A DNA stretch of 64,000 nucleotides from Thiotrichales bacterium (GTDB lineage: Bacteria > Pseudomonadota > Gammaproteobacteria > Beggiatoales > Beggiatoaceae): NCBI GenBank assembly GCA_016745035.1, contig JADGDE010000010.1, positions 62,001-126,000 of the forward strand, read 5' to 3'. Shown here piece after piece: positions 8,961 to 13,833 of the stretch (positions are counted from its first letter, which is position 1; each line of letters begins with the position of its first letter). The position numbers and the translations under genes are program-made. A model generated the notes under the pieces. That model saw only the letters and a program-made list of their open reading frames with translations, had not been told where the DNA came from and did not search any database.

Positions 8961-10079
8961 TCATAGCGCTTTTTTAAGATTTTCTAATTGCTTCTTATTC
9001 AACAGTTTTATTGCCTCTTCAGACGCATATGGACGACCTGATAATAACTTATTTAGTTTATCGGCTTTAAGCTTGAGAATCCGTTTTACTTTGAAAAATA
9101 AGTCTTTTTCCTCCATTTGGTTAAAACGTATTAAAAACTCACTGGCTTGTTTATTACTAACCACAGCAGTCGCATCAGTTTGATTGGCATCCGGTGATGC
9201 TTGAGCGTGATGCTTTTTGGTTTTATTGGGTGTATCTGGTTTCAGTAAAGAAAAAGAAAGAGTTTTCAGTTTATCAACTGTTTTATCCGCAATGCCTTTA
9301 ACTGCCGTTAAGTTAGATTCATCATAAAAAGGACGATTATCAATTACTTTCTTACTAATAGAACTATTAATGTCAATAGCCTTAATTTGTACTTGTAATT
9401 TCTCAGTATCAAGCTGATTCAATACCTGTAAATACTCAGGCATGGTACTCGATGTTGTGGTATCTGCCTGCTCCGGTCTTGCTTCAGTCTGAACGGAAAC
9501 AGGAGGCTGGGCTGGTTCAGGCGTGGAAGCCAATGGCACAGAATCAGAAGGGGAAAATTGTGGTTCTGAGGGTAAAGATTTTTCAGGCAGTGATGGCGAG
9601 GTTTCTGCTGCATCAGCAGCACTTGAAGCCGTAAAGGAAACACCAGCATTCATCACAAAAGCTTTTAGCTCTGCCATATCTTGAGACAAAGTATTCAATT
9701 GTTGTTTCATGCTGGCAATATCCTGCGCTTGAACATGATTTATGTCTGCCTCACGCGCAAAATGTTCCCGTTTTTTGAATACTTCAATTTGCTTTTCAAT
9801 TAAAGTTTTATTGTTATCTTCAATAATATAAGCATCAATTGACTCCCCAACCATGGAATCTATTTCCTTCGCTCTTAGTGCCGCATAATACTCAAAATAA
9901 CCATGCACGAGGTGATAGTGTTCTGTACCTACCCGCGACACAATAATAGGGGTAATCACACCATTTGTTTGCACAATTAATTGTGCGGCTTCCTCTATCG
10001 CTTGTGTATTGAACTGAAGGTGTGGTTTATCTACTTGAATATAATCCACTAAAATAATGGCGGGGGATAATTTTTTCAT
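8961..10079 (-). CDS. ParB-like protein with duplicated C-terminal HhH-like modules
   Basis: The 372-residue protein has three parts. Residues 1-90 resemble the ParB/Srx N-terminal fold ([43 protein letters not shown]). The usual GERR-type arginine motif that binds CTP in ParB is replaced by GYFEYYAA at 60-67. A coiled segment (95-140) and a Ser/Pro-rich linker (150-215) follow. Two related modules at about 220-274 and 318-372 share the pattern LNQxxxxxLxxxIK...RPxxxxxxLxxVKxI and resemble helix-hairpin-helix DNA-binding or ComEA-like modules. There is no central ParB helix-turn-helix. Its ATG overlaps the stop of the ParA fusion gene as ATGA, so the two are translationally coupled. Function is inferred as the DNA-binding partner of that ATPase. 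Confidence 0.65.
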
Positions 10080-11389
10080 TTTAGGCTTTGCATTTTTTCT
10101 GTCACAACGTCTGCTAATTTTTCGAATTCACTGACGGCTTTAGAACGTGAATTATAATCAAAAATCGACTGTGGATCGGCAATATCCAAACTCCCCATAT
10201 CCACTGTTTGCTCAACACATTTTGCTAAATCATCGCGCTCGTGAATGATGCATTCATCTAACACATCAATGCCGTAACGTTCTTTAACCATAGCAACACG
10301 ATTCGCTAATGTGCCTTGGGCAAATTTTGCGTTTGCAGAGACTTTTGTCGGCAAAATACCCAGTACATTTAACTTGGGCATGTTCAACATTTCTTTAAAT
10401 CCATTCACACCTTCAATAAAATTCTTTACATTGTCCAAGCCTTCATTTGCAAACGGTTTTAAATCAGATGGAATTAATAAATGATCTGCTGTAATTAAAC
10501 CAATTCTGGCGTATAAATTTAAAGAAGGGGGGGTGTCAATCAACACAATATCATAGGTTTTTTTGGCTTTTTTTAATTTTTTAACTAAAATACCGCGTGT
10601 ATAATCTAAGCGATTCAATTCATCCTCATGTTCCATTAAACGTATATGAGAAGGAATCACATCAATTGCATAAGCGCTATAACGTGCTGCTTGCTTTACA
10701 TCATTGAGTGAAAACTTGTCTTGATAGCGAAGTAAATGATAGATGTATTTATCTTTAATAGTATCTTTCTCTTCATCGCCAAAATTTAATAATCCTGTCG
10801 CAAATGTTGAATTGGCTTGACTATCTAAATCAACAATTAACACACGCTTTCCATTTTTTGCCAATGCTGCGGCCAAATTAACCACAGTTGTCGTTTTTCC
10901 AACCCCACCTTTATTATGATATACGGCTATAATTTCCATGCTATCCTCCTGTTTTTGTTTTAGCAACGTTTCTCTACCTACCCATTGAGAAATTTTTGAA
11001 ATATTTTTTTCTATACCCAGTGTAAATATTTTACACACTAGGTTAATCGTGCAATGATTAACTTTTGCATAAATACGCAATTCTCTACCATTAGTAAGAA
11101 TACCATATTGAATATTTAATTCCAGCATATAATCTTTCAATTGCGGTAAATGTTCATTCAGGTGTTTTTTAGGGTGCTTAGCTTCTATAACAACTTTTGG
11201 AGAGGTTTTATATTCATTTTTCTCTGGACATACCAAGAAATCCAGACGAAAACGGTTTTCCTTTTTTTCTTGATACCACATGTCAATGCTATAACCTAAA
11301 GCAGGTAGTAAATAAGTGATAATTAACTTGCTTTCAACTTCTCTTTCATTTTTGCAGTACTCGGGTAAAAATTTTTTCTTATTTTTCAT
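10076..11389 (-). CDS. HsdR_N-type nuclease domain fused to ParA ATPase
   Basis: The 437-residue protein is a fusion. Residues 1-130 match the type I restriction-enzyme R-subunit N-terminal (PD-(D/E)xK) fold: an early Glu in [15 protein letters not shown] (Asp50), VVIEAKHP (Glu69 and Lys71) and [14 protein letters not shown]. Residues from about 151 onward are a full ParA/Soj ATPase with deviant Walker A KGGVGKTT (160-167), [10 protein letters not shown] and Walker [13 protein letters not shown]. The ATG at 11389 has GAGGAGG upstream and is preferred to the one at 11410. A second, excellent ribosome site lies inside the gene before Met151, so ParA alone may also be made. The ParB-like gene overlaps by ATGA. 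A DNA-segregation or defence role is inference; no rep gene or phage genes are nearby. Confidence 0.8.
10937..10950 (-). promoter_or_regulatory. Internal ribosome-binding site and start before the ParA domain
   Basis: On the minus strand AGGAGGAT (10950-10943) lies three bases before an in-frame ATG (10939-10937) inside the nuclease-ParA gene. Translation from it would give a 287-residue protein starting [17 protein letters not shown], exactly where an ordinary ParA begins. The sequence supports dual products; expression is not shown. Confidence 0.6.
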
Positions 11390-11617
11390 ATTTAAGTGCC
11401 TCCTCTTCATTTTACTGGATTAAAAAACTATAACACTCTATTTATTTATATGTATTACAACAACTTACAGGTAATTATATGATGCAAATAAGAACAGCGC
11501 TATCTGCCATGTTGAAATCACGGTATATCACGAATTTCCAGAATATTGTGAGTTCATTTGGTGTAAATTTTGTAAGTTGGTGCTGAGCTTCCTTTATCAG
11601 CCCAGCCTACGGGTTTT
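11390..11617. other. Intergenic stretch upstream of the nuclease-ParA gene
   Basis: This AT-rich region must hold the promoter of the nuclease-ParA operon. I see no clear operator, RNA gene or open frame with coding character. Around 11570-11610 a degenerate segment GCTTCCTTTATCAGCCCAGC resembles the better-preserved repeat at 19601-19632. Confidence 0.4.
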
Positions 11618-11860: not shown

Positions 11861-12688
11861 CTACAAACAGCCATATTGCGCAAAATGCATGACTTCTTTT
11901 CGTTTAGAAAAATCAATCACATGTATCTTTTTTTCTTGAATGTCATCCATCACTGCATTAAACACGATATGTAAATCTTTATCTTTTTCTGGTGATTCAA
12001 CAGGCAATAAGATATTTTCAGGGTTAATCTTTTTATTTTTAATTAACCAATCAAATCGATTTAACCAATGTTCTCCATGTTCTATCACATCTGTTGCTTG
12101 TTGTTGTTGAAAAGATAGAGGCTTGATAACACGTAAGTTTTTATTTATTTCAGCAACAAAGGGTAAATTTTTTACTGTTCTTAAGTTCGTTTTTATATCC
12201 TGTTTTTTATAAACAATGCCAATGTCTTTTAATGCTTTCAATTCATGGCGCAATTGTGCCGTAATCATTTGTTCTCGATTTTGTTTGCGTCTATGAATAA
12301 AGTCTCGACCAATGTAATGATTATACAGTTGCTCGACAACGGCGGTATTATCATCCACCATAATGGTTTTTATCTCTGAAAAACGCACAATAGATTCTTT
12401 AGGCACTAACATATTTTGCATATAATGCAAAAACTCATCTTGCGCTAAATTTTGAGTGATTGTTTGAATTAACTGGAACTCTTCAATAAATAGATTAATC
12501 GCCTCTTTATAGACAGTTTTATCTAATTTATCGAAAAAGTTATTTACCCGTTTTAAGTGTGTTGGAGCAAGTTTGAAATCTAAAAAATAATGCCTTGGAG
12601 AAAAGACTAACACACCAATATTCGCAAACTCTCCCGTTTCTAGGTAGGGCAAAAATTGAATAATGCTATAGTTATATGCTTGTCTCAT
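11861..12688 (-). CDS. DUF3037 family protein
   Basis: The 275-residue protein starts MRQAYNYSIIQFLPYLETGE and continues FANIGVLVFSPRHYFLDFKL, the signature of the DUF3037 family. The family is typically encoded directly downstream of small HipA-like kinases in two-gene accessory units. The ATG at 12688 overlaps the upstream TGA as ATGA, which decides the start; a TTG five codons upstream is less likely. The body is helical and charged without catalytic motifs I know. The biochemical role of DUF3037 is unknown. Its partner here appears inactivated by deletion, so the unit may be decaying. Confidence 0.75.
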   Translation of the reverse strand: MRQAYNYSIIQFLPYLETGEFANIGVLVFSPRHYFLDFKLAPTHLKRVNNFFDKLDKTVYKEAINLFIEEFQLIQTITQNLAQDEFLHYMQNMLVPKESIVRFSEIKTIMVDDNTAVVEQLYNHYIGRDFIHRRKQNREQMITAQLRHELKALKDIGIVYKKQDIKTNLRTVKNLPFVAEINKNLRVIKPLSFQQQQATDVIEHGEHWLNRFDWLIKNKKINPENILLPVESPEKDKDLHIVFNAVMDDIQEKKIHVIDFSKRKEVMHFAQYGCL

Positions 12689-12942
12689 GTCAATTGTTCC
12701 CAAAATACTGGGGTTTTATAGGCTAATAAGCGTTGTTTTATGGTATCAAGAAAATCATCAAAGTTTGGTATCGGTAATCCAAAACTTTTGCCAATATGGG
12801 CACAAACATATTCACAGATGCGACCACGAGCCAATGCCGTATTGCCTTTAACAATGTATTTTTCACCATCGTTGGCTGTGCAAAGGTAGGGTTCAGTTGC
12901 GCCTTGTTCTAGTTTTTTGTGGATTTCGATTAGTTCTAACAC
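12685..12942 (-). pseudogene. HipA-like kinase gene with internal deletion
   Basis: The 85-residue reading frame (GTG start) begins like the HipA-like family that partners DUF3037: LIEIHKKLEQGATEPYLCTA, then GEKYIVKGNT with a likely ATP-binding Lys, then RICEYVCAHIGKSFGLPIP. Family members run to about 250 residues. Here the sequence jumps at about residue 60 to NFDDFLDTIKQRL and ends FWEQLT, with no catalytic loop or metal-binding motif. The stop still overlaps the DUF3037 start as ATGA, so the 3' end looks native and the middle appears to have been lost in frame. It cannot be an active kinase. It might still fold as a small remnant, but decay is more likely. Confidence 0.65.
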
Positions 12943-13185: not shown

Positions 13186-13833
13186 TTGCTTCTTTCCAGT
13201 CTCACATTTTCTCCCGTGTCCAGAACTTTTCAAAAACCACCAACCAGTGCTTGGCAACAAATCGAATTATTACGCCAACGCGGTTTATATATCCCAGATG
13301 AAGCGCGGGCTGAGCGGTATCTCAATGCCATCGGTTATTATCGTTTAAGTGCTTATTTCATTCCTTTTGAACAAGTCGATATGGGTACGCCACGGCAACA
13401 TTTGTTTAAAAATGAGACAGAGTTCGAGCAAATTATCGACTTGTATATTTTTGACCGTAAATTTCGTTTGTTAGTGATGGAAGCAATTGAACGTATTGAA
13501 ATTTTTGTTAGAGCGCAATGGGCAAGCACCTTTGCTTTACACTATGATGATGCCCATGCTTATATGCACAGCGAATATTTTAAATACCCGTGGAAACATT
13601 GCAAAGCTTTGGTAAAATTGGCGGCGGAAGTAAAAGAAAGCCGCGAGCTTGCCAATGAACATTATCGCAATACCTATAAAGAGCCGTTTTTAGAACTGAA
13701 ACCGGACACCCATGTAGTAGATTTATTTAGTCTGTTATTTAGATGGGTGTCCGGTTTTTTGTTTAAATCGGGAATTTATTTCAGGACAGTTCCTAAACGC
13801 TTTTTTCTCCGTTTATCTCCTAAATCTACTTGA
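13186..13833 (+). pseudogene. Truncated Abi_2 (AbiD/AbiF-like) abortive-infection gene
   Basis: Residues from about 17 to 165 match the Abi_2 family of phage-exclusion proteins: FQKPPTSAWQQIELLRQRGL, ERYLNAIGYYRLSAYFIPFE, FEQIIDLYIFDRKFRLLVME and AIERIEIFVRAQWA. Full members have about 300 residues with a conserved second half. Here the homology stops after NTYKEPF, where a 59-bp palindrome (13699-13757) enters the gene and a nonsense tail follows. The 5' end is also doubtful: only TTG or GTG starts without a ribosome site are available. I read it as a broken defence gene. Confidence 0.7.
13699..13760 (+). terminator. 15-bp perfect stem hairpin with T-run inside the broken Abi_2 gene
   Basis: AAACCGGACACCCAT (13699-13713) pairs exactly with ATGGGTGTCCGGTTT (13743-13757) around a 29-base loop and is followed by TTT and G. 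This looks like a strong intrinsic terminator or a palindromic transposon remnant. It sits where Abi_2 homology ends, so it probably arrived by insertion. Confidence 0.6.

What the first reader, a model, noticed from the sequence alone, without database searches (positions are those of the whole stretch)
8961..11389. Candidate new system: restriction-type nuclease domain fused to ParA, coupled to a CTP-motif-less ParB-like protein
The N-terminal PD-(D/E)xK domain with intact Asp, Glu and Lys is joined to a complete ParA ATPase. The coupled partner has a ParB-like N-domain, but GERR is replaced by GYFEYYAA and the ParB helix-turn-helix is absent; it ends instead in two HhH-like modules. The neighbourhood is full of defence remnants (Abi_2, HipA-like, IS debris). 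Together this suggests DNA surveillance or element maintenance and not ordinary chromosome segregation.
Basis: partly seen in the sequence, partly recalled or inferred. Interest (0 to 1): 0.75.

Follow-up and report, generated by a model that had tools for sequence, protein, structure and literature searches.

The report
Nuclease-fused ParA with ParB-like HhH partner
Two adjacent genes encode a chromosome-partitioning-type ATPase with a DNA-cutting domain fused to its front and a ParB-like partner that has swapped its usual DNA-binding parts; the pair recurs in giant sulfur bacteria and filamentous cyanobacteria, so it is a real, apparently undescribed module that may move, guard or cut DNA.

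Summary
Gene A (10076-11389, -) has an HsdR-type PD-(D/E)xK domain (D57, E76, K78) joined to a complete Soj/ParA ATPase. Gene B (8961-10079, -) overlaps it by 4 bp and has a ParB fold without GERR, a long helix and two HhH modules. It is no local oddity: the pair occurs in 25 of 43 family genomes, in Thiorhodospira and in dozens of cyanobacteria, with catalytic residues invariant in 80 of 80 fusions. B keeps G-x-F-E-Y-Y-A-A in place of GERR; some B proteins swap HhH for Rho_N. The close family is chromosomal, with stable neighbours in Nostocales. A distant branch sits on cyanobacterial plasmids; on one 12.6-kb plasmid it is the only ParA-type gene found. Several cyanobacteria lost the nuclease domain but kept ParA and B. 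In Beggiatoaceae the pair is recruited next to defence genes (AbiLi beside 5 of 26 loci, about 0.03 expected; AbiLii fused to A in 3). I infer a ParAB-type DNA-handling module with an active nuclease, for element maintenance or DNA surveillance. Canonical ParABS membership fails (no CTP motif, no HTH). Function is untested; no published description was found in the open library. New variant of a known kind.

The parts
10076..11389 (-). Gene A: PD-(D/E)xK (HSDR_N type) - ParA fusion, start ATG at 11389
   Evidence: ORF; HSDR_N, HSDR_N_2 and AAA_31 over Pfam cut-offs; AGGAGG 9 nt upstream
10961..11371 (-). Nuclease-type N-domain of A; E22, E26, D57, E76, K78 invariant in 80 of 80 fusions
   Evidence: secondary structure of the model
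11240..11242 (-). Codon of catalytic Asp (D57)
   Evidence: alignment
11177..11185 (-). Codons of E76-A-K78 (ExK motif)
   Evidence: alignment
10079..10939 (-). ParA/Soj ATPase domain of A
   Evidence: AAA_31 8e-53; Soj Z 35.0, rmsd 1.8, 253 residues
10889..10912 (-). Deviant Walker A, KGGVGKTT
   Evidence: invariant in alignment A2
11399..11404 (-). Shine-Dalgarno AGGAGG of A
10076..10079 (-). ATGA overlap of the end of A and the start of B (translational coupling inferred)
   Evidence: sequence
8961..10079 (-). Gene B: ParB-fold N-domain, long helix, two HhH modules
9810..10079 (-). ParB N-domain fold of B
   Evidence: ParB_N 1e-6; Z 11.8 to M. xanthus ParB
9879..9902 (-). GYFEYYAA at the place of ParB's GERR motif
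   Evidence: 82 of 85 B proteins have Glu at the second Arg position, none Arg
9624..9818 (-). Long helix (probable coiled coil) of B
   Evidence: model, residues 88-152
9237..9443 (-). First HhH module of B
   Evidence: weak HHH_3 match; family profile matches ComEA HhH; HhH-type folds
8964..9140 (-). Second HhH-like module of B (seen in the window and in L056)
   Evidence: model and alignment A3

Best explanation
A two-gene ParA/ParB-like DNA-handling module that carries its own nuclease. Shown by sequence: a Soj-type ParA with an intact HsdR-type PD-(D/E)xK domain in front, and a translationally overlapping partner with a ParB fold, no CTP arginine motif, a long helix and a swappable DNA-binding tail (HhH or Rho_N). 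Inferred: A-ATP dimers bind DNA non-specifically. B dimerises through its helix and sits on DNA through its tail, without the CTP clamp switch and without a sequence-specific HTH. B meeting A triggers ATP hydrolysis, as in ParABS, so A and B track or gather DNA. The nuclease domain cuts or nicks DNA under control of the A-B state. The use that fits best is maintenance and surveillance of replicons, that is, telling apart DNA handled by the system from DNA that is not. In Beggiatoaceae the module has been recruited into defence operons.
For: Pair order kept in all intact loci. D57, E76, K78 in 80 of 80 fusions, and the N-domain is as conserved as the ATPase (mean pairwise identity 66% against 60%), which points to catalysis and not mere DNA binding. 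B lacks the CTP motif in 85 of 85. DNA-binding tails are interchangeable: HhH families in many, Rho_N in 4 of 54. AbiLi adjoins A in 5 of 26 loci, expected about 0.03; AbiLii/RloB is fused to A in L071, L074, L079; PDC-M07A/B adjoin B (for L069, clustering for L068 and L072). A distant plasmid branch with E-x-K kept exists.
Against: No activity of any part was measured. In Nostocales and Chamaesiphon the pair sits in stable housekeeping neighbourhoods, not defence islands. At least five cyanobacterial pairs lack the nuclease domain without a remnant, so cutting is not essential to the core. No close-family copies were found on phages, plasmids or viral contigs.
Confidence: 0.45

Rival explanations
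1. A plain partition system (chromosome or plasmid) in which the PD-(D/E)xK domain serves only as an extra DNA-binding or autoregulatory domain, as the N-terminal HTH does in type Ia ParA. It segregates replicons by the usual ParA gradient mechanism.
For: Pairs without the nuclease domain persist. On the 12.6-kb Pseudanabaena plasmid ABRG53g, with a CyRepA1 replication protein, the related pair is the only ParA-type gene found. Stable chromosomal synteny in Nostocales. The home family lacks canonical ParB almost entirely (1 of 43 over the cut-off).
Against: Catalytic residues are strictly invariant, which a mere binding domain would not need. No CTP motif or HTH, and no centromere-like repeats found. 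Eighteen of 43 family genomes have no A found.
Confidence: 0.3
2. A dedicated anti-plasmid or anti-phage defence system: B senses invading DNA, ParA assembles, and the nuclease destroys the DNA.
For: AbiLi, AbiLii, PDC-M07, AbiD and PDC-M66 beside or fused to the pair in about nine Beggiatoaceae loci; low GC of the pair, 36% against 43.5% for the window; patchy presence with few shared flanks among Beggiatoaceae loci; at least two transfers from cyanobacteria into the family; remote match to candidate PDC-M28B.
Against: Cyanobacterial copies lie next to housekeeping genes; nuclease-less versions persist; a distant branch is carried by plasmids themselves.
Confidence: 0.17
3. A positioning system for a protein cargo, like McdAB for carboxysomes.
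For: ParA/MinD ATPases position many cargos; the ParA part also aligns with McdA (Z 29.5).
Against: B has a ParB fold and DNA-binding tails, unlike McdB as I know it; neighbours show no cargo genes; a nuclease domain makes little sense there.
Confidence: 0.05

Closest known systems
ParABS partition systems (Soj/ParA and ParB/Spo0J/Noc)
   Same: Soj-type ParA (Z 35) overlapping a partner with a ParB N-domain (Z 11.8)
   Different: A has a PD-(D/E)xK domain in front; B lacks GERR, HTH and a ParB-type C-domain and carries HhH or Rho_N instead; no parS-like site found
Type I restriction subunit HsdR (HSDR_N domain)
   Same: N-terminal PD-(D/E)xK domain of the HSDR_N family over the curated cut-off
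   Different: No SF2 helicase; joined to ParA; no HsdM/HsdS among the scanned neighbours
AbiL (AbiLi/AbiLii, RloA/RloB) defence
   Same: In L071, L074 and L079 AbiLii is fused to A, directly downstream of AbiLi
   Different: Absent from the window and from most relatives; AbiL as catalogued in PADLOC is a two-gene system of its own
PADLOC candidate PDC-M28B
   Same: Weak match (1e-11); in L223 the matched stretch spans both the nuclease domain and the P-loop
   Different: Remote; B does not match any PDC-M28 partner
ParB/Srx proteins of conflict systems (GmrSD-type ParB-HNH, DndB, Osa; PMC12839542)
   Same: ParB fold used in DNA conflict, in GmrSD together with a nuclease
   Different: As described there they have no ParA partner of this kind and no HhH tail

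Membership tests
Canonical ParABS | Deviant-Walker ParA ATPase | tested here: met
   KGGVGKTT invariant; Soj Z 35.0 over 253 residues
Canonical ParABS | ParB CTP-binding GERR motif | tested here: not met
   0 of 85 have GERR; Glu at the second Arg in 82; GERR shown essential for CTP binding in S. coelicolor ParB (PMC12207404)
Canonical ParABS | ParB helix-turn-helix parS-binding domain | tested here: not met
   Pfam, NCBIfam and structure matches cover only the ParB N-domain and the HhH/Rho_N tail; the model has a long helix where the HTH would be; TIGR00180 finds no canonical ParB in this genome
Canonical ParABS | Centromere (parS or iterons) beside the genes | tested here: inconclusive
   No repeats or shared palindromes beside the pair; canonical parS with 2 mismatches no commoner than the control pattern; an unknown site elsewhere is not excluded
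HsdR of type I restriction | HSDR_N PD-(D/E)xK domain | tested here: met
   35 bits against cut-off 25
HsdR of type I restriction | SF2 helicase/translocase domain in the same protein | tested here: not met
   Remaining domain is ParA
HsdR of type I restriction | HsdM and HsdS partners | tested here: not met
   Flanking genes scanned are DUF3037, HipA_2, Abi_2 and a transposase fragment; only near neighbours tested
AbiL defence | AbiLi AAA ATPase and AbiLii/RloB genes | tested here: not met
   Not in the window locus; present only in some relatives
Active PD-(D/E)xK nuclease | D-ExK residues in the core fold | tested here: met
   80 of 80; positions in strands 2 and 3 of the model
Active PD-(D/E)xK nuclease | DNA cleavage activity | not testable with these tools
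   Needs biochemistry

The most novel reading that the evidence does not exclude
A new class of ParAB-like system, conserved in two phyla, in which a partition ATPase directly controls an attached restriction-type nuclease and a CTP-independent ParB-fold partner marks DNA, so that DNA which is not properly handled or owned is cut.
Probability: 0.3. Interest if true: 0.85.

Novelty: new variant of a known kind. Interest (0 to 1): 0.66.

Why it matters
ParA ATPases are known as movers of DNA and other cargo. Here one is fused to an intact restriction-type nuclease and paired with a ParB-fold protein that has given up the CTP switch and the HTH. The module is not a curiosity of one genome: it is widespread in filamentous cyanobacteria, including a Nostoc punctiforme strain and, as a distant branch, a Leptolyngbya boryana plasmid, where it can be tested genetically. 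If the nuclease is active it would link segregation machinery to restriction, with bearing on plasmid competition and on genome upkeep in polyploid filamentous bacteria. The near-absence of canonical ParB from the whole sulfur-bacteria family adds a second open question.

Tried and rejected
Plasmid or phage origin of the close family: no plasmid record covers 80% of A and none matches B; no phage record matches B or covers 80% of A; IMG/VR gave no relative of the N-domain. One plasmid hit (Nostoc sp. UHCC 0870) turned out to be a distant branch of the same architecture. Replacement of canonical ParB in cyanobacteria: rejected as a simple rule, co-occurrence is positive. Centromere search: direct and inverted repeats and shared upstream palindromes gave nothing convincing. 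N-domain against PDB sequences: no match; the structure list for A is filled by ParA, so the N-domain fold rests on Pfam, residues and secondary structure. The ParA neighbour (294 aa) in Nostocales matches Soj-type ParA best by sequence, McdA is not among its matches. Literature searches on HsdR/ParA, RloA/RloB, ParB/HhH and nuclease/partition found no description; subscription papers and preprints are not in the library.

Full report
Observation. A ends inside the start codon of B (ATGA, 10076-10079). A scores over the curated Pfam cut-offs for HSDR_N, HSDR_N_2, PDDEXK_3 and AAA_31, and B for ParB_N. The model of A (25 aligned sequences, mean pLDDT 84) shows helix-strand-strand-strand-helix-strand in residues 22-106, with D57 in the second strand and E76 and K78 at the third. 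The ParA part aligns with Soj at Z 35.0, rmsd 1.8, 253 residues. B's first ~90 residues align with CTP-binding ParB structures (Z 11.8, 91 residues, rmsd 2.7). A long helix follows, then two HhH-like modules. A profile of 54 B proteins matches ParB/Noc with its N-part and ComEA-type HhH with its C-part in the PDB.

Distribution. A search of 96 relatives found A in 25 of 43 genomes of the window's family, 55-63% identical in most; two more genomes have B at a contig edge. Record titles name members of the family as Thiomargarita, Beggiatoa, Thioploca, Marithrix and Parabeggiatoa; I call it Beggiatoaceae here. In an even sample of 370 genomes of the class, only members of this family match; Thiorhodospira sibirica is one further case (L115). 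The genome scan gave 191 relatives of the N-domain and kept 80; the rest of those kept are cyanobacteria, mainly Nostocales but also Chamaesiphon, Microcoleus and Symploca. Nearly all loci where the contig allows it hold a ParA fusion followed directly by B; the exceptions are broken or split frames. In 386 cyanobacterial genomes, 59 match strongly.

Conservation. E22, E26, D57, E76 and K78 and the Walker motif are identical in 80 of 80 fusions. The N-domain is as conserved as the ATPase. In B, the position of the second GERR arginine is Glu in 82 of 85 and never Arg; the signature is G-x-F-E-Y-Y/H-A-A. Mutating GERR abolishes CTP binding in Streptomyces ParB (PMC12207404), so CTP use by B is unlikely but untested. 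The C-terminal tail varies: HhH families in many, Rho_N in 4 of 54, for example L177. Exchange of one DNA-binding tail for another is good indirect evidence that the tail binds DNA.

Core without nuclease. Five cyanobacterial loci (L207, L208, L209, L211, L215) have ParA and B of the same family but no N-domain and no remnant of it nearby. In the tree they are nested among fusions, so the domain was probably lost several times while ParA and B were kept. The core therefore has a use of its own.

Context. In Nostocales and Chamaesiphon the pair has recurring chromosomal neighbours: isoleucyl-tRNA synthetase and a second ParA, or purD and a large signalling-type protein, or a dacB-like gene (names by my reading of the sequences). 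In Beggiatoaceae flanks differ nearly everywhere, although the A tree groups several same-genus pairs. Four Beggiatoaceae copies (L074, L079, L075, L076) fall inside the cyanobacterial clade, which implies at least two transfers. Defence genes are strongly enriched. AbiLi lies directly upstream of A in L015, L065, L071, L074 and L079. There are about 107 AbiLi matches in 43 genomes, so about 0.03-0.04 such adjacencies are expected, taking 4000 genes a genome. In L071, L074 and L079 the second AbiL gene (AbiLii/RloB) is fused in frame to the front of A. PDC-M07A follows B in L069, with M07B behind it; L068 and L072 have the same ATPase by clustering. In the window itself the neighbours are PDC-M66-type genes and AbiD, and the pair is GC-poor, 36% against 43.5%.

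Plasmid branch. No plasmid in the collection carries a close copy. A distant branch with the same architecture sits on cyanobacterial plasmids: three of Nostoc sp. UHCC 0870, pLBA of Leptolyngbya boryana, and two of Pseudanabaena. E22, E76 and K78 are conserved there; two reach the HSDR_N_2 cut-off. Profile comparison gives 95.6% probability for the N-domain and 93.4% for B. On the 12.6-kb plasmid ABRG53g it is the only ParA-type gene among the annotated genes, beside a CyRepA1 replication protein. The Nostoc plasmids also carry ParM and ordinary ParA or ParAB genes.

Canonical ParABS. The home family nearly lacks canonical ParB: TIGR00180 reaches its cut-off in 1 of 43 genomes, and parS-like sites are no commoner than a control pattern. 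But 18 of 43 genomes show no A, and in cyanobacteria A and canonical ParB co-occur more often than chance, so simple replacement is not supported.

Interpretation. Shown by sequence: architecture, pairing, conservation, losses, transfers and neighbours. Inferred: nuclease activity, DNA binding by B, and ATPase stimulation of A by B. I think the pair is a ParAB-type DNA-handling module with an active nuclease, used for element maintenance or surveillance and repeatedly joined to defence genes in Beggiatoaceae. Plain partition with a non-cutting N-domain is the main rival; strict residue conservation speaks against it, and the nuclease-less pairs and ABRG53g speak for it. A pure defence system is possible in Beggiatoaceae but fits the cyanobacterial contexts badly.

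Novelty. By tested features it is not canonical ParABS, not HsdR and, in the window, not AbiL. The nearest catalogue entry is the PADLOC candidate PDC-M28B, a weak match to A. I found no description in the papers searched. I rate it a new variant of a known kind.

Noticed in passing
whole family of the window's genome (43 genomes): Canonical ParB (TIGR00180) reaches its cut-off in only 1 of 43 genomes and parS-like sites are no commoner than a control pattern; the family seems to have lost ParABS.
   Followed up: partly
window 11861-12942: DUF3037 gene and a truncated HipA_2 gene matching the PADLOC candidate PDC-M66A/B, with AbiD (Abi_2) at 13186-13833.
   Followed up: no
L071:7288-9213, L074:6246-8219, L079:7841-9706: Triple fusion AbiLii(RloB)-HSDR_N-ParA directly downstream of AbiLi: a defence system joined in frame to the module.
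   Followed up: partly
L223:2936-3820 and similar Nostocales loci: A second, Soj-like ParA (294 aa) lies divergently beside A in many Nostocales; in others a small protein with a weak z-alpha (winged-helix) match follows B (L172:8337-9116).
   Followed up: partly
PDB 9k3a chain B, residues 1343-1405: A phage tail protein contains a stretch that matches the B profile (1.8e-8) better than any solved ParB does.
   Followed up: no
L082:6616-7554 (G017) and L081:7909-8733 (G005): B-like genes without A; the one in L082 holds two B-like N-domains in tandem.
   Followed up: no
L222:4330-6943 (Anabaena sp. 4-3): Tandem copies: a nuclease-less ParA of the same family directly upstream of a full A-B pair.
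   Followed up: no
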